Below are positions 1 through 12,812 of a DNA stretch of 64,000 bases, one piece after another (positions within the stretch are counted from its first letter, which is position 1; each line of letters starts with the position of its first letter). The notes beneath the pieces were generated by a model that saw only the letters and a program-made list of their open reading frames with translations, had not been told where the DNA came from and searched no databases. Location of the stretch: assembly GCA_001464125.1 (NCBI GenBank), contig LNEP01000003.1, positions 1-64,000 of the forward strand. Direction: 5' to 3'. Source of the stretch: Betaproteobacteria bacterium Ga0077540 (lineage in GTDB: Bacteria > Pseudomonadota > Gammaproteobacteria > Burkholderiales > Methylophilaceae). The translations under genes and the position numbers were made by a program.

Positions 1-509
1 CCACGGATGATTTGCAGACCGTGTGTGATCCCATGCACATCCTGCATCGGGATAGCCACGGTACCAACACCGCTTGGGGCAAATCTTAAACCGTGCGCTT
101 TTACGGCTTTGCGGTCTAAGTAGTCACTGGCGCCAGTGGCAACATAGGCAGCCCAAACACGCTGTGCTTCTTTGGCTGCAAGCTCGGCATCGCGCTTGCG
201 CATGGCCTCTGCTTTTTTACTGGATTCTGCATGTTGGGCTTTGATTGCTGCCAGCTGATCCTTGCTGAGTTTGGCGCCCTCTCCTGGGCCAATCTTTTCT
301 TTGAATGACTCACCGCCAATGAAATAACCAAAGCTACCAATTAACGCACCATCACCATTGTCCAAGGTAATTTCATGCAGGCTGTACCAGCCCCTTTGCG
401 AATGGCCGGTGCGCTTGACTCTACGCATGCCACCAACATCAAGTCGTTGGATTTCAAACTCATGGCTGATGAGTAGGCTTAACACATCATCGTAGTTGCG
501 CCAGATCAT
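1..509 (-). CDS. Phage/plasmid-type DNA primase-like protein (N-terminal part, runs off the left edge)
   Basis: An open frame starts with ATG at 509 and stays open to the left edge (169 codons seen). It overlaps the stop of the preceding gene by 4 bases (ATGA). The N-terminus is MIWRNYDDVL. A charged helical stretch follows (about residues 95-125), then segments AYLDRK-like (SDYLDRKAVKAHGLRF) and GTVAIPMQDVHG. This order is known from the region before the TOPRIM domain of phage and plasmid primase/helicase proteins that read a bare linker, then YL..KGV..HG.R, then the TOPRIM strand. The catalytic part is outside the window, so the primase call is by resemblance of these segments. It is the last gene seen in the leftward early operon. 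Confidence 0.6.
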   Translation of the reverse strand, partial: MIWRNYDDVLSLLISHEFEIQRLDVGGMRRVKRTGHSQRGWYSLHEITLDNGDGALIGSFGYFIGGESFKEKIGPGEGAKLSKDQLAAIKAQHAESSKKAEAMRKRDAELAAKEAQRVWAAYVATGASDYLDRKAVKAHGLRFAPSGVGTVAIPMQDVHGITHGLQIIR

Positions 510-1500: not shown

Positions 1501-1766
1501 CTATTTCCTATGACTTAATCCCAGCCTGCGCTGCCAATCATCACGGCAATCACAGTCACAATACCGCTCACCATCAGACAGTGGCTCTTGGCAGTTAAAG
1601 CAGGCGCCCGTTGGCGCTGGCAACAAGGGTGCGAGCGCCCGTTGGCGCTGGCAACAAGGGTGCGAGCGCCCGTTGGCGCTGGCAACAAGGGTGCGAGCGC
1701 CCGTTGATTAATGGAGTGCTGCAGGAATTGCTCTGCTCGCTCTTGGGCTTTATCTATGTCATCCAT
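1501..1766 (-). pseudogene. Small zinc-ribbon phage protein, put out of frame by a 31-base tandem repeat
   Basis: ATG at 1766 gives MDDIDKAQERAEQFLQHS. The start overlaps the end of the CII-like gene by 8 bases. In the frame that follows the repeat array with three repeat steps, the product ends in an unlikely tail. In another frame, the last 35 codons (about 1606-1501) encode ACFNCQEPLSDGERYC then DCDCRDDWQRR and stop TAG at 1501-1503, a clear four-cysteine zinc ribbon of a type common in phages. Reading passes from the start into the ribbon frame when the number of 31-base steps is 1 or 4, because 31 is 3n+1. With 3 steps, as here, the ribbon is lost. Seen directly: the frames and cysteines. 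Inferred: that the ribbon form is ancestral. Confidence 0.7.
1604..1706. repeat. 31-base tandem repeat, three full units plus a 10-base partial unit
   Basis: The block beginning GCGCCCGTTGGCGCTGGC recurs at 1604, 1635 and 1666, and the first ten bases again at 1697. The spacing is exactly 31 bases and the copies are identical. It lies inside the small zinc-ribbon gene and shifts its frame by one base per unit. Identical copies suggest recent expansion by slippage or unequal exchange. Confidence 0.95.
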
Positions 1767-5794: not shown

Positions 5795-6075
5795 GCGTTG
5801 TGATTGAATTAAGCATCACAGAACGTGTGTTGGACATACTGCCTACCAGCAAAGAGGCTGCCTATTCGCCAAAACAAATACTGGCTGCACTAGGCGTTAA
5901 TCGTCGCCCTGATTACATCAGGCAAATATGCCGTGGCTTACTACAAGCTGGCCGCGTCGATGCTGTAAAAATATCTTATAAGGATGTGCGTTACTACAAA
6001 ATCAATAGTGCAATTCCATTAAGCCAAGTGCCAGAGGTGCCTTGGTTAATCAAGCCACAAAGGTCTGCAGCATGA
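5791..6075 (+). CDS. Small winged-helix-like phage protein
   Basis: 94 residues from ATG 5791, overlapping the previous stop by 4 bases. Segments ERVLDILPTSKEAAYSPKQI and LGVNRRPDYIRQICRGLLQAGRV, then VRYYKIN, have the helix-helix-turn-recognition helix-hairpin rhythm of a winged helix. A DNA-binding role is inferred from this pattern alone. Confidence 0.55.
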   Translation: MSVVIELSITERVLDILPTSKEAAYSPKQILAALGVNRRPDYIRQICRGLLQAGRVDAVKISYKDVRYYKINSAIPLSQVPEVPWLIKPQRSAA

Positions 6076-6749
6076 CTAAATCACGTGGCATTTTAAGAAA
6101 ACGCAAACAATGGACTGCGGACGAGCTAGCCCTATTAAAGGCGCTTTACCCCTGCACAAGATGCGAGGCATTGGCAACCCTGTTTAATTGCCAAAAAAAT
6201 CAAGTCTACAAGATGGCCAAAATTCTCGGCGTGGCTAAATCACAATGGTTTAAAGATAGCCCAATGGCCAGCCGGTTGCGCCGTGGCGATAACCTTGGAT
6301 GGGAATATCGATATAAAAAAGGAAATATCCCCGCCAATAAAGGCGTTAAGGGATTGCCTGTGCACCCTAACTCTGTGGCCACGCAATTTAAAAAAGGCAT
6401 ACAGCCACAAAACACCATGCCAATTGGTGCCTACCGCTACGACGCTTCTAACGTACTGCAGCGAAAAGTAAGCAATGCCAAAGGAAGCAACAGCAAGCGC
6501 TGGCGCAGTGTTCACGAATTGGTATGGATTGAACACAACGGCCCAGTCCCTGAAAAGCATTTTTGCGTATTTAAGCCAGGCATGTGGACCAATAAATTAG
6601 AAGAAATCACGATTGATCGCATCGATTGCATAGACCTTGCCGAAAACATGCGCCGCAATTCTTTTCATCGATACGGCAAAGAAGTTGCCCAGCTTTATCA
6701 GCTTAGCGCGCAGATCACCCGACAAATTAACAAAAGGACTGCCCAATGA
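6072..6749 (+). CDS. HNH homing-type endonuclease
   Basis: 225 residues from ATG 6072, again an ATGA overlap. The N-terminus has a Myb/SANT-like helix-turn-helix (QWTADELALLKALYPCTRCEA). Then comes a GNIPANKGVKGLP linker of the type seen in HNH proteins with NUMOD-like spacers. The C-terminal third reads SVHELVWIEHNGPVPEKHFCVF then EITIDRIDCIDLAENMRRNS, which is the HNH_3 layout (H...W....G..P.G..V...NG....N). In this copy the second His and the later Asn are less typical (PEKHFCVFKPG), so activity is not certain. Expected role: DNA nicking or cutting for phage homing or packaging. Confidence 0.75.
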   Translation: MTKSRGILRKRKQWTADELALLKALYPCTRCEALATLFNCQKNQVYKMAKILGVAKSQWFKDSPMASRLRRGDNLGWEYRYKKGNIPANKGVKGLPVHPNSVATQFKKGIQPQNTMPIGAYRYDASNVLQRKVSNAKGSNSKRWRSVHELVWIEHNGPVPEKHFCVFKPGMWTNKLEEITIDRIDCIDLAENMRRNSFHRYGKEVAQLYQLSAQITRQINKRTAQ

Positions 6750-7041: not shown

Positions 7042-7290
7042 ATGAAAGTCTGGCTATTTGCAGCGCTTTTTTGTATCACTGCCAATGCAGCCGATGAAAA
7101 GAAGCCAGAACTTAAATGCGACGGGTACACCATGTACACTCACCCAGACGCAAAGTGCAGAGAGCAGCTGCAGCAGGAATACAAAACATTATTTGAACAG
7201 TTTTTAAAGCAACACCCACCACTAAAGGAGAATGTAAATGAATCAAGTAGCAGAAATTCCAGCACAAGCAGCACCCATGCAAATCACTAA
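7042..7290 (+). CDS. Small exported protein
   Basis: 82 residues, ATG two bases after the previous stop. The N-terminus MKVWLFAALFCITANA is a convincing signal peptide with an A-N-A cleavage site, followed by a charged mature part with three Cys (KCDGY, KCREQL). There is no lipobox. The last 53 bases overlap the first DGR target gene in another frame, including its AAGGAG ribosome site. Could be periplasmic; function unknown. Confidence 0.5.
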   Translation: MKVWLFAALFCITANAADEKKPELKCDGYTMYTHPDAKCREQLQQEYKTLFEQFLKQHPPLKENVNESSSRNSSTSSTHANH

Positions 7291-7633
7291 ACCTGAGCTT
7301 AAAGAAGGTGAGCATTATGCCGGTGCAATCATCCATCCAGATGGCACGGGGCATCATGTAATTCTCTTGCCAGGTGACAAAGATGACGGCACATGGCAAG
7401 ACGCAATGGATTGGGCAAAAGAGCAAGGCGGCGATTTACCTGATCGTGTTGAGCAATCACTGTTATTTGCTAAATCAAGAGACCAATTTCAAAAAGACGT
7501 GTACTGGAGCAATACAACTCACGAACGTGAAACAGAGTGGGCTTGGTACCAGTATTTCAGTTACGGGTACCAGACCAATACCACCAAGACTGGCGAGCTC
7601 CGCGCCCGCGCTGTCCGCAGATTACCCATTTAA
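7238..7633 (+). CDS. DGR-type variable protein 1 (C-type-lectin-like, DUF1566/FGE type)
   Basis: 131 residues from ATG 7238 with AAAGGAG seven bases upstream. The core reads LKEGEHYAGAIIHPDGTG, HHVILLPGDKDD, WQDAMDWAKEQGGDLPDRVEQ and VYWSNTT, and then WAWYQYFSYGYQ, ending ELRARAVRRLPI. This is the C-type-lectin-like (formylglycine-generating-enzyme-like) fold used by DGR variable proteins, where a final W.QNF.NGNQ..ELRARAVRR stretch is the variable surface. No signal peptide. The gene's last 87 bases hold the variable region (7547-7620). Its three neighbours downstream are paralogues. Ligand or partner is unknown; the usual role is binding a variable target. Confidence 0.85.
   Translation: MNQVAEIPAQAAPMQITKPELKEGEHYAGAIIHPDGTGHHVILLPGDKDDGTWQDAMDWAKEQGGDLPDRVEQSLLFAKSRDQFQKDVYWSNTTHERETEWAWYQYFSYGYQTNTTKTGELRARAVRRLPI
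7547..7620 (+). other. DGR variable region 1 (VR1)
   Basis: 74 bases in frame with the gene. Compared with VR2 there are 10 differences, all in codon positions 1 or 2 and none in position 3. The paired codons are TAC/TTC, TAT/GAT, AGT/ATT, TAC/ACC, TAC/AAC, ACC/ATC, ACT/TTT and GGC/CGC. Each pair fits an AAC or AAT codon in a template. The last 26 bases, from GAGCTCCGCG onward, are invariant and GC-rich, as at the initiation-of-mutagenic-homing end of DGR targets. Confidence 0.85.
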
Positions 7634-7669
7634 TAATTTGATCATTTAATTATTTATCAGGAGCCATCC

Positions 7670-8020
7670 ATGAACCAACCAGAACTTAATGAAGGTGAAA
7701 TCTACATCGGCGGGTTTATCCATGCCGATGGCACTGGCCATCACACCATTCTATTGCCAAGCGATTACGATCCAGCGCCATGGAAAACACAGATGGAACG
7801 CGCTGCAGCAGAAAACTCAGACCTACCAACCCGTGCTGAGCTTGTGATTATGTATGAGCAGTTTCCAAATGAGTTTCAAGAAACTTGGTACTGGAGCAAC
7901 ACAACGGACAGTGATGGCGATCAGTGGGCTTGGTTCCAGGATTTCATTACCGGGAACCAGATCAATACCACCAAGTTTCGCGAGCTCCGCGCCCGCGCTG
8001 TCCGCAGAGTGCTTTTTTAA
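7670..8020 (+). CDS. DGR-type variable protein 2 (C-type-lectin-like)
   Basis: 116 residues from ATG 7670 with AGGAG upstream, 36 bases after gene 1; the spacers of the four genes share AT-rich 'ATTTAGTCATTT'-like stretches, so gene plus spacer was duplicated as a unit. Same fold motifs as gene 1: LNEGEIYIGGFIHADGTG, HHTILLPSDYD, DLPTRAELVIM, WYWSNTT, then WAWFQDFITGNQ and ELRARAVRRVLF. Outside the variable part it is clearly diverged from gene 1, including silent sites, so the purely position-1/2 pattern in the VR is not from general divergence. Confidence 0.85.
   Translation: MNQPELNEGEIYIGGFIHADGTGHHTILLPSDYDPAPWKTQMERAAAENSDLPTRAELVIMYEQFPNEFQETWYWSNTTDSDGDQWAWFQDFITGNQINTTKFRELRARAVRRVLF
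7934..8007 (+). other. DGR variable region 2 (VR2)
   Basis: 74 bases, exactly collinear with VR1 without gaps and in the same reading frame. Variable codons are TTC, GAT, ATT, ACC, AAC, ATC, TTT and CGC, all with the third base of VR1 conserved. The constant codons between them (CAG, TTC, GGG, CAG, AAG) are shared with VR1. Confidence 0.85.
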
Positions 8021-8056
8021 TCATTTAGTCATTTAACAATTTTTAAGGGTTCAATT

Positions 8057-8485
8057 ATGAGCACCATTACACTAGACCAAATTAAGGCAGAGCAAACCAA
8101 GCTAAACGCAATGATTGCCAGCTTTGAAGCTACCAATTCCGCAAAAAACATATTCCCCATCACCTTTGATTTTCCGGAGCTTAAAGAAGGCGAGCAATGG
8201 GTAGGCACCATCATCAGCGCAGGTGGCAAAAAAGAGCATGTGATTTTATTGCCCGGTGAAAAAGACGACATCAACTGGCAAGATGCAAACGAGTGGGCAG
8301 CCAGCATTGGTGGTCAGCTGCCAGATAGAGTGGAGTCCGCCCTGCTCTATAGCTGCATGAAAGATGAGTTTAAAGAAGAGGCTTACTGGACGTGTGAGAC
8401 GCACACAGGCAATGCAGAGTGGGCTACCAGAGCTACGACGGCAAGCATGGCGAGCTCCGCGCCCGCGCTGTCCGCAGAGAATTAG
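8057..8485 (+). CDS. DGR-type variable protein 3, frameshifted at the start of its variable region
   Basis: Open frame of 142 residues from ATG 8057. It has an N-terminal helical extension absent from genes 1 and 2 (STITLDQIKAEQTKLNAMIASFEA), then the lectin-like core (LKEGEQWVGTIISAGG, HVILLPGEKDD, WAASIGGQLPDRVES, AYWTCETHTG). Against gene 4 one T is missing at the GCT|TAC junction (8425). After it the frame shifts, and the product ends in an Ala/Ser/Thr-rich tail instead of ELRARAVRR. Restoring the T would give YQSYDGKHG then ELRARAVRRELDI, with a stop at 8491-8493. As it stands, it lacks its presumed binding surface and is probably inactive, unless the VR is rewritten by new retrohoming. 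Confidence 0.8.
   Translation: MSTITLDQIKAEQTKLNAMIASFEATNSAKNIFPITFDFPELKEGEQWVGTIISAGGKKEHVILLPGEKDDINWQDANEWAASIGGQLPDRVESALLYSCMKDEFKEEAYWTCETHTGNAEWATRATTASMASSAPALSAEN
8425..8477 (+). other. DGR variable region 3 (VR3), preceded by a 1-base deletion
   Basis: In the restored frame the codons after CAG are AGC, TAC, GAC, GGC, AAG, CAT and GGC, and then the constant GAGCTCCGCG block. Against VR4 (AAC, ACC, AGC, TAC, AAG, ACT, AGC) there are 10 differences, again all in codon positions 1 and 2, with the third bases C, C, C, C, G, T, C unchanged. Confidence 0.8.
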
Positions 8486-8522
8486 ATATTTAGTCATTTG
8501 ATTTATTTTTAAAGGTTTCATT

Positions 8523-9011
8523 ATGAGCACAGTCACACTAGACCTAATCAAGACCAAGCAGGCAGAGCTAAACGCAATGATTGCCCGCTTTGAAGCTACC
8601 AAATCCGTACAAGATTTATTCCCTATCACCTTCGGGGCGCCACAACTTAACGAAGGCGAACGATGGGTAGGCACTATCATCAGTGCGGGCGGTAAAAAAG
8701 AGCATGTGATTTTACTACCAGGAGAGAAAGACGATATTAACTGGAAAGACGCTACCGAATGGGCAGCCAGCATCGGTGGCCAACTGCCAGACAGAGTGGA
8801 GTCCGCCCTGCTCTATAGCTGCATGAAAGATGAGTTTAAAGAAGAGGCTTACTGGACGTGTGAGACGCACACAGGCAATGCAGAGTGGGCTTACCAGAAC
8901 ACCAGCTACAAGACTAGCGAGCTCCGCGCCCGCGCTGTCCGCAAAGCCTTATGCACCACCACCAAAACCACCAAAGGAGTGAGTGATGCAATACACGCTC
9001 ATAGAAGGTAA
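8523..9011 (+). CDS. DGR-type variable protein 4 (C-type-lectin-like)
   Basis: 162 residues from ATG 8523 with AAAGG upstream. It has the same helical N-terminus as gene 3 (STVTLDLIKTKQAEL), then the core and VR, ending SELRARAVRK. A unique 25-residue tail follows, rich in Thr and Lys (CTTTKTTKGVSD). The tail passes over the ribosome site of the next gene and ends at 9011, overlapping it. Bases 8793-8891, just before the VR, are identical to gene 3 (8327-8425) for 99 bases, although the parts further upstream have diverged at many silent sites. Confidence 0.85.
   Translation: MSTVTLDLIKTKQAELNAMIARFEATKSVQDLFPITFGAPQLNEGERWVGTIISAGGKKEHVILLPGEKDDINWKDATEWAASIGGQLPDRVESALLYSCMKDEFKEEAYWTCETHTGNAEWAYQNTSYKTSELRARAVRKALCTTTKTTKGVSDAIHAHRR
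8892..8943 (+). other. DGR variable region 4 (VR4)
   Basis: In-frame codons TAC, CAG, AAC, ACC, AGC, TAC, AAG, ACT and AGC lead into the constant GAGCTCCGCG block. Several of them still look like or are one step from AAC/AAT. The last template codons before the constant block (AAG AAT AAC) can be inferred to be the same for all four VRs, while the 5' part of the VR1/VR2 template differs from that of VR3/VR4. Confidence 0.85.
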
Positions 9012-9165
9012 AGATTCAACAATTGAGCCATGCCCAATTTGTCACAGCAAAGCCCAATTATGGCGTTTTAGTGAGGATATGGATTCGCCTGTATCTCACG
9101 TTGTGATGTGCTCTCATGACGGAGCTATTGGACAGAGAGGTGGACTTGTTCGCGATGGTTGCTGA
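8986..9165 (+). CDS. Small zinc-finger phage protein (Lar-like)
   Basis: 59 residues from ATG 8986 with AAAGGAG upstream. It holds CPICHSKAQLWRF and later VVMCSHDGAIG; the PCP.C motif at the start followed by a distant Cys resembles the Lar family (restriction alleviation proteins of lambdoid phages). It is short and its second Cys pair is incomplete, so it may be a diverged or degenerate member. Same leader as the gene at 10,579 (CCAAAGGAGTGAGTGATG). Confidence 0.5.
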   Translation: MQYTLIEGKDSTIEPCPICHSKAQLWRFSEDMDSPVSHVVMCSHDGAIGQRGGLVRDGC

Positions 9166-9355
9166 TGCTGAGAGGTATAGATGGTTGCGTGATGAATCGC
9201 CAAAACATAAATGCGCCTCACCTTCAGCAACTATGCCAGATGGTTTTGGCATCAAAGTTAGGATGGGATTTCACGGGGATTACAAATGCCAGCCTTACAT
9301 GGATTTAAGTGGCTATGCGCTTGACCAAGCAATTGATTCAGCGAAAGGGAAATGA
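9116..9355 (+). CDS. Hypothetical phage protein
   Basis: 79 residues from ATG 9116, overlapping the previous gene by 50 bases. Pattern VADAERYRWLRDE near the start and ALDQAIDSA near the end, as in many short phage proteins that read 'DA.RYRWLR..........LD.AID.A'. Function unknown. Confidence 0.6.
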   Translation: MTELLDREVDLFAMVADAERYRWLRDESPKHKCASPSATMPDGFGIKVRMGFHGDYKCQPYMDLSGYALDQAIDSAKGK

Positions 9356-9588
9356 TGAGCTACGACCCAAACGGATGCAGTCATGGTGTTAAGTGGGGTG
9401 AAACGTGTGGTCAATGTGAAAAAATTATCCTAAAGCAAAATATATTTGATTTGTCGCAGGATTGTAAAGCGGTAGCAGAAGCACTATCCAATCAACCAAT
9501 GATGTGCACTAGTCCAGAAGTCATTATTGATTTGTACAGAACAATAGACCGATTGGCTAGCATTCTTTTAAGGATAAACCATGACTGA
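9352..9588 (+). CDS. Small phage protein with a Cys/His cluster
   Basis: 78 residues from ATG 9352 (ATGA overlap with the gene before). CSHGVKWGETCGQC near the start could bind one zinc; the rest is helical. Family not recognised. Confidence 0.55.
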   Translation: MMSYDPNGCSHGVKWGETCGQCEKIILKQNIFDLSQDCKAVAEALSNQPMMCTSPEVIIDLYRTIDRLASILLRINHD

Positions 9589-10120
9589 CACACAAAGAGA
9601 AGCGTTTGAAGCAAAGTTTCCTGCACCTGTTGGAGTGACTTTATTCGGTAAAGAATATGTTTGGTTTGGTGGTAATCACCACGGGAAAACTTGCGAATCA
9701 TACAACAATATGTGGAAAGCATTTCAAGCTGGATTAGAGGCTAACACAATGCAATTGCAAGCCATTTATGACGATATGTACAGGCATAAAGACATAGCTC
9801 AAGTAGCGCAGAAACTTTTCATGCTAATTAACGGGCAAGCCGCACTAGCACATAGCCAGAAGGATGAAAAACCGCTATGGGTAAAGCCTAAAGCTTATCC
9901 CGAAAGTAGCGTTCTTTGTTATTTGAAACTATCAAACGGAAAAGTTATTGAGGGAAGTTGTAGGCATGATTGGGATGGAATTGGCTGGTATAAAGGCTAT
10001 CCCGGCATGTGCAACGGTTTTTCTATGGCAGACCCTGATGTAGTTGGCTGGATGTATAAGCATCAAACAAAACTAACGTTAGAACAGCTTAACGCCATCA
10101 CCAATAGAAAGGATGAATGA
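9581..10120 (+). CDS. Hypothetical phage protein
   Basis: 179 residues from ATG 9581, overlapping the previous gene by 8 bases. The N-terminal half reads REAFEAKFPAPVGV and later YNNMWKAFQAGLEAN, the common phage segment 'FE.W......W..W.AR'. The C-terminal half has many aromatic residues (GIGWYKGYPGMCNG). Function unknown; it may be a fusion of two short phage modules. Confidence 0.6.
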   Translation: MTDTQREAFEAKFPAPVGVTLFGKEYVWFGGNHHGKTCESYNNMWKAFQAGLEANTMQLQAIYDDMYRHKDIAQVAQKLFMLINGQAALAHSQKDEKPLWVKPKAYPESSVLCYLKLSNGKVIEGSCRHDWDGIGWYKGYPGMCNGFSMADPDVVGWMYKHQTKLTLEQLNAITNRKDE

Positions 10121-10563
10121 TGGGAACCCATAACGGAGTATTTTGCGAAGAAGATGAAGCCCCTATTAAACCGACTTATGAGCAACTAGAACAATTGTAC
10201 TTTGCTCAATGCGAAGCCACAGATGAATGGGCTGATAAATGCGAACAACTCAAGCAAGAAAACGCTAGTTTAATACATGATTTGAATCAGTATATTTTAA
10301 TTGCTAATACAACTTCCACGGATTTAGCCCAAGCCCAAGCCGAAAAAGCGGAGTTAGTGAGACAGTGTGCGGAGATAGTTGGAAGATACGACCCTGATAC
10401 AGATGACGCTTTGGGCGCTTATGTATCGAGAAACGCAGTCTACGATGCAATACTTTCCCTACTACCAAAGGAGCAATCTGTGAAATATGAACAAAAATAT
10501 AAAGGTACTTTTGATGACTTTTCATCAGTGCCTTTTAGAGATTACAGACCAAATGGTGATTAA
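10117..10563 (+). CDS. Coiled-coil phage protein
   Basis: 148 residues, ATG at 10117 with AAAGGA upstream, ATGA overlap. The middle (about 18-90) is a long helix with heptad-like pattern (LEQLYFAQCEATDEWADKCEQLKQEN), followed by CAEIVGRYDPDTDD and AVYDAILSLLP. Function unknown. Confidence 0.55.
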   Translation: MMGTHNGVFCEEDEAPIKPTYEQLEQLYFAQCEATDEWADKCEQLKQENASLIHDLNQYILIANTTSTDLAQAQAEKAELVRQCAEIVGRYDPDTDDALGAYVSRNAVYDAILSLLPKEQSVKYEQKYKGTFDDFSSVPFRDYRPNGD

Positions 10564-10578
10564 CCAAAGGAGTGAGTG

Positions 10579-10773
10579 ATGGAATTTGAACGTAAAGAAA
10601 AGTACATCGTTTTAAAGATTAGTAAATTATCTGATATTGAAATTAACGAAGTAAAAGAAAAATACAGCCGTGCTATGACTGAATCGGTAGTAGTGCCTTC
10701 AACATGGACACAAGAGTATGAAGCGGCTTGGAAACTAGTTGAGGATAAAATAGTTAAGGACACAACCAAATGA
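10579..10773 (+). CDS. Small hypothetical phage protein
   Basis: 64 residues from ATG 10579, with leader CCAAAGGAGTGAGTGATG as before the gene at 8986. Reads MEFERKEKYIVLKISKLSD, then WTQEYEAAWKLVEDKI. Highly charged. Function unknown. Confidence 0.55.
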   Translation: MEFERKEKYIVLKISKLSDIEINEVKEKYSRAMTESVVVPSTWTQEYEAAWKLVEDKIVKDTTK

Positions 10774-11384
10774 AAGAACGCCCAATACTTTTTAGTGCCC
10801 CTATGGTGAATGCCATATTGAATGGCACCAAGACGGTGACTAGGCGCACAGTAAAGCTGCCAAATGGCTGTGTGTTTGGCAATGATTATGCCGGCCAAAT
10901 AATTGATACAAAGCATCAAAACATGCCTGGCCATGACATAGAGTTTCCAATAGATGAACTGCACTGCTCCTACGGGCAAGTTGGCGATCAGTTATGGGTG
11001 CGTGAGGCGTGGCGTTGGAATGATGGCACAGAATGCGGATGTTCTGAATTTTGCCATCATAGTGGCGCAGGCTATGAGTATCGGGCAACAGGTGCAGGCG
11101 ATGAAGATACCAAGTGGAAACCATCTATTCACATGCCACGCAAAGCAAGCCGCATACAGCTTGAAATTACTGGTGTGCGCGTTGAGCGATTGCAGGATAT
11201 TAGCGAGGAAGATGCAAAGGCAGAAGGTGGACCAGACATACTTGGCTTTGAACACGATACTGTGAAGCATGGTTGGCAAAGCTACAGTGAGTGGTATCTA
11301 TGGCTTTGGGAATCAATTAACGGCGCTGGATCATGGGCGGCTAATCCATGGGTGTGGGTGATTGAGTTTAGGAGGGTTGAGTAA
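10770..11384 (+). CDS. ASCH-domain phage protein
   Basis: 204 residues, ATGA overlap. It begins KERPILFSAPMVNAILNGTKTVTRR, the hallmark of phage ASCH-like proteins, and continues VGDQLWVREAWRW, then SRIQLEITGVRVERLQDISEEDA, and ends NPWVWVIEFRRVE. ASCH (PUA-like) domains bind RNA or modified nucleotides; the phage role is not established. The Cys-rich insert (CGCSEFCHH) is found in several phage members. Confidence 0.8.
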   Translation: MKERPILFSAPMVNAILNGTKTVTRRTVKLPNGCVFGNDYAGQIIDTKHQNMPGHDIEFPIDELHCSYGQVGDQLWVREAWRWNDGTECGCSEFCHHSGAGYEYRATGAGDEDTKWKPSIHMPRKASRIQLEITGVRVERLQDISEEDAKAEGGPDILGFEHDTVKHGWQSYSEWYLWLWESINGAGSWAANPWVWVIEFRRVE

Positions 11385-11386
11385 AA

Positions 11387-11593
11387 ATGGTTGAATGGGT
11401 TACTATCCAAAAACTTGCCGCCGATACAGGCTACAGCGTGCAAGCGTTACGGGCAAAAATAAACAGGGGCGATTTTATCCAGGGGTTACATTGGCGCAAA
11501 TCGCGTGATGGCCGCATACAATTTAACATAGAGGCATACAACTCATGGGTCAAAGGCGAGAGGCTGGAATTGAAGAGCGTGGTAGCAGCATAA
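11387..11593 (+). CDS. Excisionase / helix-turn-helix DNA-binding protein
   Basis: 68 residues. WVTIQKLAADTGYSVQALRAKINRGDF is an AlpA/Xis-type winged helix-turn-helix, with GLHWRKSRDGRIQFNIEAYNSWV after it, the typical ending of small excisionases beside a tyrosine integrase. It overlaps the integrase start by 49 bases. Expected role: directing excision together with the integrase. Confidence 0.8.
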   Translation: MVEWVTIQKLAADTGYSVQALRAKINRGDFIQGLHWRKSRDGRIQFNIEAYNSWVKGERLELKSVVAA

Positions 11594-12705
11594 GGATAGT
11601 TTTTCAATGGCGCGGCATGCGCTGCCGTGAAACCCTAAAGATTGAGCCTACCAAGACCAACAAACAGTATGCAGCAGGCCTACTGGCAGAGATAAAACGC
11701 AAGATACAGATCGGCACGTTCAACTATGCCGATTATTTTCCAAACTCAGCCAAGGCGGCAACCGGCAAAAACATCCACTTAACGTTTGCTGATGCTGCAG
11801 ATACCTGGTTAAAAGCCAACGCGCAACTGGCCAAGTCATCATTTATTACTTATCAAAAGCACTTAAACAAGCACTGGCTGCCAGAGTTTGGTAAGCGCAG
11901 ACTAAGTGAAATTACCTACACCGAATTGATGGCGCACCTGGCACAAATCAAAGTCACGCCAAAAACCCGCAACAACATACTGATCCCCATGCGCAGAATA
12001 CTCGATGCAGCATTCTTGGACGGTGTGATCGAGACTAACCCTGCAGCGCGCATCCGCAATGTGAAAGCACAAAAGGCTGAGCCTGATCCATTCACGCTTC
12101 CAGAGGTTGACAGGATCCTTGGCCATATTAAAAACACCTATGATGAACAGATATTAAATTATTTTGAATTTGCCTTTTTTAGCGGCCTAAGAACATCAGA
12201 GCTGATAGATCTAAAGTGGGGTGATGTTGAGGCGGACTTGGTGGTGGTTCGCAGTGCCAAGGTGGAAGGTGAAAGTAAATCAACTAAAACTAGCCAGATC
12301 CGTTATGTTGAATTAAACGCCAGGGCAAAGGCCGCTTTAAAACGCCAAAAATTACACACCCACCTTAAATCAAACTATGTGTTTTTAAACCCAATCACCG
12401 GCAAAACATGGAGTGATCAACGGTCACAAAGCCAAGTCTACTGGACGCCAACTCTTAAAAAGCTAGAGCTGCACCACCGGACGCCATATCAAACCAGACA
12501 CACCTTTGCCACATTAATGCTGATGGCCGGAGCTAACCCCATGTGGGTGGCCAGACAACTTGGCCATGCGAACATGAAAATAACGCTAGAGGTATACAGC
12601 AAGTGGATTGATCTGGCGGATAAATCGAGAGAGCTGGACAAAGTAAATAACGCTCTATTTGCCCCAAATATGCCCCAAGAAAAAACCAGTGCCGCTGGAA
12701 GCTAG
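11545..12705 (+). CDS. int: Tyrosine site-specific recombinase (prophage integrase)
   Basis: 386 residues from ATG 11545. The N-terminus has an arm-type DNA-binding segment (GIEERGSSIRIVFQWRGMRCRETL, DUF3596-like), and a core-binding SAM-like domain lies around residues 85-170 (TFADAADTWL). The catalytic domain has Arg in GLRTSELIDLKW, the H-x-x-R box in YQTRHTFATL, His in QLGHANM and the Tyr nucleophile in LEVYSKWI. It integrates the element into the tRNA-Ser 3' end, 17 bases away. All catalytic residues are present, so it should be active. Confidence 0.93.
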   Translation: MGQRREAGIEERGSSIRIVFQWRGMRCRETLKIEPTKTNKQYAAGLLAEIKRKIQIGTFNYADYFPNSAKAATGKNIHLTFADAADTWLKANAQLAKSSFITYQKHLNKHWLPEFGKRRLSEITYTELMAHLAQIKVTPKTRNNILIPMRRILDAAFLDGVIETNPAARIRNVKAQKAEPDPFTLPEVDRILGHIKNTYDEQILNYFEFAFFSGLRTSELIDLKWGDVEADLVVVRSAKVEGESKSTKTSQIRYVELNARAKAALKRQKLHTHLKSNYVFLNPITGKTWSDQRSQSQVYWTPTLKKLELHHRTPYQTRHTFATLMLMAGANPMWVARQLGHANMKITLEVYSKWIDLADKSRELDKVNNALFAPNMPQEKTSAAGS

Positions 12706-12722: not shown

Positions 12723-12812
12723 TGGCGGAAGAGGTGAGATTCGAACTCACGGAGGGCGTGAACCCTCGACAGTTTTCAAGACTGTAGCATTAAACCGCTC
12801 TGCCACTCTTCC
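12723..12812 (-). tRNA. tRNA-Ser(TGA), phage attachment site
   Basis: Cloverleaf on the minus strand: acceptor GGAAGAG pairs with CTCTTCC, the anticodon loop CTTGAAA gives TGA, there is a long variable arm typical of class II tRNA, then T-arm GTTCGAATC, with CCA encoded. The 3' end faces the integrase, so it should carry the attachment core; the other core copy is outside the window. Confidence 0.95.

What the first reader, a model, noticed from the sequence alone, without database searches (positions are those of the whole stretch)
7238..9011. Four tandem genes with the signature of diversity-generating retroelement (DGR) target genes
Seen directly: the 3' ends of the paired genes line up without gaps. 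VR1 against VR2 differs at 10 positions and VR3 against VR4 (in restored frame) at 10 positions. All 20 differences fall in codon positions 1 or 2 and none in position 3. Every variable codon pair ends in C or T, as expected if the template codon were AAC or AAT (examples TAC/TTC, GAT/TAT, GGC/CGC, CAT/ACT). Constant codons (CAG, GGG, AAG) sit between them and an invariant GC-rich block GAGCTCCGCG... closes each VR. Established: DGR reverse transcriptases mutate at template adenines and rewrite the 3' end of C-type-lectin-fold genes, and this protein pattern (W.QNF.NGNQ..ELRARAVRR) is a known DGR target type. Outside the VR the paralogues differ at silent sites, so selection alone would not explain the pattern.
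Basis: partly seen in the sequence, partly recalled or inferred. Interest (0 to 1): 0.92.

Follow-up and report, generated by a model that had tools for sequence, protein, structure and literature searches.

The report
Phage hypermutation targets without their mutator
Four neighbouring prophage genes carry the clear fingerprint of a known natural protein-diversifying machine, but the machine itself (template and reverse transcriptase) is neither where relatives keep it nor found in the incomplete assembled genome, and some related phages look the same.

Summary
Four tandem C-type-lectin-fold genes (7238-9011) end in a near-identical GC-rich block. All 20 differences inside the paired variable regions (VRs) fall in adenine columns of a template repeat (TR) found independently in a related viral contig (L015). 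They are targets of a diversity-generating retroelement (DGR). Genes 3 and 4 are identical for 99 bases before the VR, then differ at 10 VR sites, so rewriting was recent. The rest of the DGR was not found: relatives place Avd, TR and reverse transcriptase (RT) after the last target and before the integrase, and here that stretch is contiguous and empty. No RT or further block copy was found in the assembly, and no RT or Avd remnant in the window. The assembly is 88.6% complete and most of the prophage is missing, so a distant cassette is not excluded. Loci without a full RT recur: 10 of 63 evaluable related viral loci, plus Pseudomonas phage Aurca01, whose sister Cruim01 has the full DGR. In four of these an HNH endonuclease lies between the last target and an RT C-terminal remnant. 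RT-less DGR targets are already described elsewhere: a new member of a known kind, with the HNH link as a new, weakly tested lead.

The parts
7238..7633 (+). Target gene 1, C-type-lectin (Lcl_C-like) fold, 131 aa
   Evidence: ORF; Lcl_C 1.6e-6, below Pfam cut-off; AlphaFold and Foldseek
7670..8020 (+). Target gene 2, same family, 116 aa
   Evidence: ORF; Lcl_C 2.8e-6, below Pfam cut-off
8057..8485 (+). Target gene 3, frame shifted inside its VR so the encoded C-terminus is lost
   Evidence: ORF; comparison with gene 4; no Pfam match
8523..9011 (+). Target gene 4, shortened VR and a 21-residue tail after the VR
   Evidence: ORF; no Pfam match
7541..7594 (+). VR1
   Evidence: all differences from VR2 in L015 TR adenine columns
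7928..7981 (+). VR2
8425..8451 (+). VR3 (short form)
8892..8918 (+). VR4 (short form)
7595..7621 (+). 3' block after VR1, like an initiation-of-mutagenic-homing (IMH) site
7982..8008 (+). 3' block after VR2
8452..8478 (+). 3' block after VR3
8919..8945 (+). 3' block after VR4, one base changed near its 3' end
8327..8425 (+). 99-base tract identical to 8793-8891 in gene 4, directly 5' of the VR; upstream divergence is 53 of 270 sites
8970..8988 (+). 19-base exact repeat, also at 10563-10581, just after gene 4's VR; possible rearrangement junction (inferred)
9012..11544 (+). Contiguous stretch where relatives keep Avd-TR-RT; here only small ORFs without RT or Avd match
6042..6749 (+). HNH endonuclease-like gene upstream of the array (phrog_1891 1.4e-40; Pfam HNH_3 below cut-off)
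11545..12705 (+). Tyrosine integrase of the prophage
12723..12812 (-). tRNA-Ser next to the integrase, probable attachment site
   Evidence: role inferred
3..509 (-). Phage primase cut by the contig end; no further part of it was found in the assembly (one other match, E 0.09)

Best explanation
The four genes are DGR targets in a partial prophage. In the past a DGR reverse transcriptase copied a template repeat, randomised its adenines and pasted the copies into the 3' ends of these genes, anchored by the shared GC-rich block; this changes the predicted binding face of small C-type-lectin-fold proteins of unknown role. The Avd-TR-RT cassette that relatives carry between the last target and the integrase is absent here, most likely because it was lost or displaced after recent activity, leaving an RT-less target array. 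Shown: target identity, adenine-limited variation, recent rewriting of genes 3 and 4, absence of the cassette at the expected place, and no RT match in the incomplete assembly. Inferred: that the cassette was lost rather than lying elsewhere, and how; the copying mechanism itself is established knowledge on DGRs, not tested here.
For: All 20 differences inside the VRs lie in adenine columns of an independent TR. Family membership in DGRs: 53 of 74 viral loci with an RT of 300 codons or more, G043, Magia, Cruim01. No RVT_1 match in own genome (control genomes ring), no match to the G043 RT (without a control), no extra block or VR copy beyond short chance hits, no RT or Avd profile match in the window at E <= 1, with profiles that detect remnants in controls. 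In 11 of 11 RT-bearing viral loci where an integrase was recognised (42 others had none in the locus) it lies after the RT, so the expected slot is within the contiguous window. Gene 4's tail and the 19-base repeat fit a junction there. Sister-phage precedent Cruim01/Aurca01 with a leftover RT C-terminus.
Against: The assembly is 88.6% complete, the window starts at a contig end inside the prophage, and the rest of the primase was not found in the assembly, so much of the prophage is unseen. Several relatives have extra targets thousands of bases from the cassette, so a distant cassette is possible. No RT or Avd remnant was found in the window, so loss is not directly shown. Three of 163 relatives have as long a tail as gene 4. 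None of 54 extracted templates matches the window VRs at all non-adenine sites (best: 23 mismatches over four VRs). No read data were available.
Confidence: 0.66

Rival explanations
1. The DGR is complete, but its template, Avd and RT lie in the unassembled part of the prophage or elsewhere in the genome and act on this array at a distance.
For: Genome 88.6% complete and prophage cut at the contig start. Distal targets exist in Magia and in loci such as L130 and L131. Trans activity on remote targets is inferred for Thiohalocapsa (PMC10907252, passages).
Against: In the RT-bearing loci where an integrase was recognised the cassette lies before it (11 of 11), and here that stretch is contiguous without it; no block copy or RT in the assembled 2.33 Mb.
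Confidence: 0.23
2. The source population is mixed: some cells carry the intact cassette and the assembly shows a deletion form.
For: Reported for DGR 7 of Thiohalocapsa PB-PSB1, where long reads showed structural variants with intact RT (PMC10907252, passages). The incomplete assembly would fit, though whether it comes from a metagenome is not told.
Against: Nothing in the window points to it; no reads available.
Confidence: 0.08
3. The genes are ordinary lectin-like paralogues and the pattern arose by diversifying selection and gene conversion without a retroelement.
For: A gene-conversion-like identical tract is present.
Against: All 20 differences inside the VRs sit at template adenines of an unrelated contig; between genes 3 and 4 there are 0 changes in the 99 bases before, 1 in the 27-base block after and 10 in between; the family is linked to an RT in 53 of 74 loci.
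Confidence: 0.03

Closest known systems
DGR of Burkholderia phage Magia (PMC7883833, passages)
   Same: Same lectin-fold target family, early region between recombination genes and integrase, several targets
   Different: Magia has Avd and RT right after its targets; the window has neither
IMG/VR contig L015 (3300042337_000460)
   Same: Same 24-base block letter for letter; two targets of the family, 50-65% identical to window gene 1
   Different: Has Avd, TR and the start of the RT
Pseudomonas phages Cruim01 (full DGR) and Aurca01 (RT-less)
   Same: Aurca01 keeps three VRs with almost only adenine-site changes but no Avd, TR or intact RT, like the window
   Different: Aurca01 keeps the last 29 RT codons after an HNH gene; the window has no such remnant
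RT-less VRs reported in Nanoarchaeota (PMC4372165), a cyanobacterial gene all3226 (PMC7517822) and Thiohalocapsa (PMC10907252)
   Same: VRs with past or present diversification at sites lacking an RT (passages)
   Different: Those are cellular genomes; here a prophage array of four targets
Bordetella phage BPP-1 DGR
   Same: Adenine-directed rewriting of a lectin-fold gene (established knowledge, recalled)
   Different: Its target is a tail receptor-binding protein (recalled); these sit in an early region and have no assigned role

Membership tests
DGR target (variable) gene | 3'-end VR whose changes fall at template adenines | tested here: met
   10 of 10 and 10 of 11 differences in L015 TR adenine columns; with the L101 TR 8 of 10 and 8 of 11
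DGR target (variable) gene | C-type-lectin (or other DGR) scaffold | tested here: met
   Gene 1: AlphaFold pLDDT 91.6, Foldseek best hit Lcl C-terminal domain, then C-type lectins
DGR target (variable) gene | IMH-like block at the VR 3' end shared with a TR | tested here: met
   Identical 24-base block in L015 TR; homing function itself not tested
Complete DGR | Reverse transcriptase | tested here: not met
   No RVT_1 or G043-RT match in own assembly nor profile match in the window; assembly 88.6% complete
Complete DGR | Template repeat | tested here: not met
   No further copy of the block's 17-base core beyond 3-mismatch hits, no further VR match beyond short chance hits; assembly incomplete
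Complete DGR | Accessory protein Avd | tested here: not met
   No Avd profile hit in the window; elsewhere in the genome only contig ends were searched
Complete DGR | Live diversification | not testable with these tools
   Needs reads or culture

The most novel reading that the evidence does not exclude
In this phage group HNH homing endonucleases repeatedly displace the Avd-TR-RT cassette and leave RT-less target arrays. These arrays keep the conserved block and could still be rewritten in trans by RT-bearing relatives in the same cell, so DGR machinery would be a shared, exchangeable good that surveys anchored on the RT do not see.
Probability: 0.15. Interest if true: 0.7.

Novelty: new member of a known kind. 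Interest (0 to 1): 0.45.

Why it matters
It shows that target arrays can be recognised, and placed on a template from a relative, without an RT nearby. A large metagenomic survey states that its approach would not detect remote targets (PMC8144416, passage). If RT loss is as frequent as 10 of 63 evaluable loci (a sample biased to close relatives, with near-duplicates) suggests, the number of once-diversified phage proteins is underestimated, and pairs such as Cruim01 and Aurca01 allow a direct look at what happens to targets after the mutator goes.

Tried and rejected
Related loci of window gene 2 as a single-protein query in viral contigs gave none; the alignment query worked. Integrase relatives (20 loci) show no targets in the stretches held. 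The 21-base core of the block in 12 genome contigs was not followed up. Among 399 genomes of the order, own included, only the own genome has that core with up to one mismatch. In 22 genomes of the genus (own included) only G009 has one distant relative of the target family. The idea that the rest of the cassette or prophage sits at another contig end was tested with ORFs of four relatives: no RT or Avd match, and outside the window's own contig only one 29-residue hit (L060). The idea that an HNH gene removed the cassette in the window itself is not supported: the window's HNH gene lies before the array and no RT remnant is left. tblastn of 105 relatives' RT and Avd proteins gave only chance-level hits (best E 0.11 in the first 13 kb, 0.011 in the rest of the window). 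The HNH association is only suggestive: HNH_3 within 1.5 kb after the last target in 4 of 10 loci without a full RT against within 1.5 kb after the RT in 5 of 40 RT-bearing ones, p = 0.065 (a sixth lies at 1.6 kb); anywhere in the record, over cut-off, 7 of 10 against 11 of 40, p = 0.018. Loci are not independent: L149 and L151 share 11,279 bases, and others are near-duplicates.
Full report
Check of the observation. Four tandem ORFs at 7238-7633, 7670-8020, 8057-8485 and 8523-9011 share a 24-base GC-rich block at 7595, 7982, 8452 and 8919. VR1 and VR2 differ at 10 sites; VR3 and VR4 at 10 in the VR plus one near the block's 3' end; all are in codon positions 1 or 2. The third gene is out of frame within its VR, so its product lacks the family's C-terminus.

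A template from a relative. A scan for the 21-base core of the block found two viral contigs. One, L015, carries two targets, an Avd gene (bAvd 1e-14), an adenine-rich copy of the VR between Avd and the contig end, and the first codons of an RT. That copy was found through the invariant block, not chosen for its fit at variable sites. Its adenine columns contain 10 of 10 VR1/VR2 differences (28 adenine columns of 81, p = 7e-6) and 10 of 11 VR3/VR4 differences (20 of 54, p = 6.7e-5); the eleventh is the block-end change. With the L101 template the fit is 8 of 10 and 8 of 11. None of the 54 templates extracted matches the window VRs at all non-adenine sites; the best, L015 (listed as L104), leaves 23 mismatches summed over the four VRs, so the window's own template is unseen.

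Recency. Genes 3 and 4 differ at 53 of 270 sites upstream (13, 6 and 34 in codon positions 1, 2 and 3), then are identical for 99 bases (8327-8425; chance 4e-10 at the upstream rate), then differ at 10 VR sites and by one base of length, then are identical through the 27-base block but for one base. A recent conversion between the two genes followed by template-driven rewriting of the VR explains this; ordinary divergence does not.

What the proteins are. Window gene 1 models as a C-type-lectin fold (mean pLDDT 91.6, 22-row alignment). Foldseek's only match at E <= 0.001 is the Legionella Lcl C-terminal domain 8q4e (2.9e-5), followed by C-type lectins. Lcl_C is matched in Pfam below its curated cut-off for genes 1 and 2 and not for 3 and 4. 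By sequence no PDB chain is found at E <= 1. What they bind is unknown.

Context. The window is the start of contig C3 of a 15-contig, 2,330,242-base assembly, 88.64% complete. The left 12.7 kb is prophage: a cut primase, a minor-tail-like gene, CII-like and repressor genes, an HNH gene, the targets, small genes, and an integrase beside tRNA-Ser. Only the edge fragment of the primase is found in the assembly, apart from a match at E 0.09 elsewhere, so most of the prophage is probably missing.

The machine is not there. RVT_1 has no match in the own genome (control genomes rang in 3 of 14). The G043 RT has none either, in a search without a positive control. The block and VR have no further copy beyond short chance hits. 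Profiles built from relatives' RT and Avd proteins (105 sequences in all) find nothing in the window at E <= 1, while they find remnants in L105, L118, L157, L138 and Aurca01 and intact genes in L103; tblastn with the same proteins gives only chance-level hits in the window.

Where it should be. G043 (same order) has three targets, Avd, template and RT, then a methylase-like and an integrase-like gene (the last two by eye). In Magia and QDWS the RT lies before the annotated integrase too. Among the 53 RT-bearing viral loci an integrase was recognised in 11, always after the RT; in the other 42 none was seen within the locus. In the window that stretch (9012-11544) is contiguous and holds only small ORFs. 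Gene 4's tail is 21 residues, against 3-10 in 160 of 163 relatives (the other three have 21), and a 19-base repeat lies just beyond the VR (8970 and 10563): a possible junction, not proof.

How common this is. The alignment query matched 336 stretches, 254 of them confirmed relatives; the best 80 were kept, giving 74 distinct loci. By a mechanical rule 53 have an RT of 300 codons or more, 11 are cut by an end, and 10 lack a full RT although at least 2.5 kb follows the last target: L105, L118, L126, L138, L149, L156, L157, L161, L169, L170. A whole-record RVT_1 search of these ten found none. Of three further records in that call, L103 rang, while L101 (RT cut by the contig end) and L115 did not, so the search can miss truncated RTs. 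L149 still has a template-like copy and an RT fragment of 303 bases. L156 has one target only and may have a cassette outside the record. The records may be fragments.

Precedents. Phages Cruim01 and Aurca01, both from apricot soil on P. syringae CC1557, have targets in the same place. Cruim01 has Avd, template and RT; in Aurca01 none was found, but the last 29 RT codons remain (93% identical) after an HNH gene. Their three VR pairs differ at 47 sites, 46 of them template adenines. A term search of the main text of the paper describing them counts 0 for 'retroelement' and 0 for 'reverse transcriptase' (PMC11256456). L105's three VRs show no non-adenine difference from the template of L111 over 96 bases; its target array is 91% identical to that of L111.

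A lead. In L105, L118, L157 and Aurca01 an HNH endonuclease gene lies between the last target and an RT C-terminal remnant (in L157 the two overlap slightly). In L169 and L170 an HNH gene directly follows the last target. L126 has a short ORF that resembles the start of such a gene by eye, with no family match. The RT remnants begin at profile positions 286, 289, 319 and 344, so about three break points exist. This suggests that homing-type endonucleases displace the cassette. Against it: HNH genes also lie near the cassette in RT-bearing phages, the other loci without a full RT (L138, L149, L156, L161) have no HNH gene in that slot, and the tests are weak (p = 0.065 and 0.018). The window itself has no HNH gene in that slot.

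What is in print. RT-less VRs are described in Nanoarchaeota (fossil or remote; PMC4372165, passage), for a cyanobacterial gene all3226 (PMC7517822, passages) and in Thiohalocapsa, with trans activity and structural variants (PMC10907252, passages). Some crAss-like phages contain cassette fragments (PMC12386605, passage). Magia's DGR is announced in PMC7883833 (passages). Those pairing DGR with homing or HNH endonuclease listed 8 and 6 papers; I searched only one of these for passages and saw no link there. I do not claim that none exists. Term searches in PMC10743442 and PMC11792537 gave nothing on RT-less targets.

Verdict. The array is a new member of a known kind, DGR targets without a visible mutator, most likely RT-less by loss; a distant cassette in the missing prophage part is the main rival.

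Noticed in passing
window 1604-1706: A 31-base unit repeated head to tail (three identical 41-base copies at 31-base spacing) in the prophage between the tail-like and CII-like genes.
   Followed up: no
L105:10887-12262, L118:10465-11825, L157:10365-11289, L095:9906-10488: HNH endonuclease genes sit between the last DGR target and a leftover RT C-terminus.
   Followed up: partly
L138:10867-11079 and L157:10365-10556: Avd is cut at nearly the same codon (profile positions 55 and 58) in two different phages, with an HNH gene following in only one.
   Followed up: no
L095:9906-10400: Aurca01 gene annotated as RecB matches NUMOD4 and HNH_3, that is an HNH homing-type endonuclease.
   Followed up: yes
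window 8425-8451 and 8892-8918: VR3 and VR4 lack about 8 codons present in VR1 and VR2; gene 4's segment is shorter than all 163 VR segments measured in relatives.
   Followed up: partly
L049 (own genome contig C8): A 526-base contig translates to unknown residues throughout, that is it reads as N.
   Followed up: no
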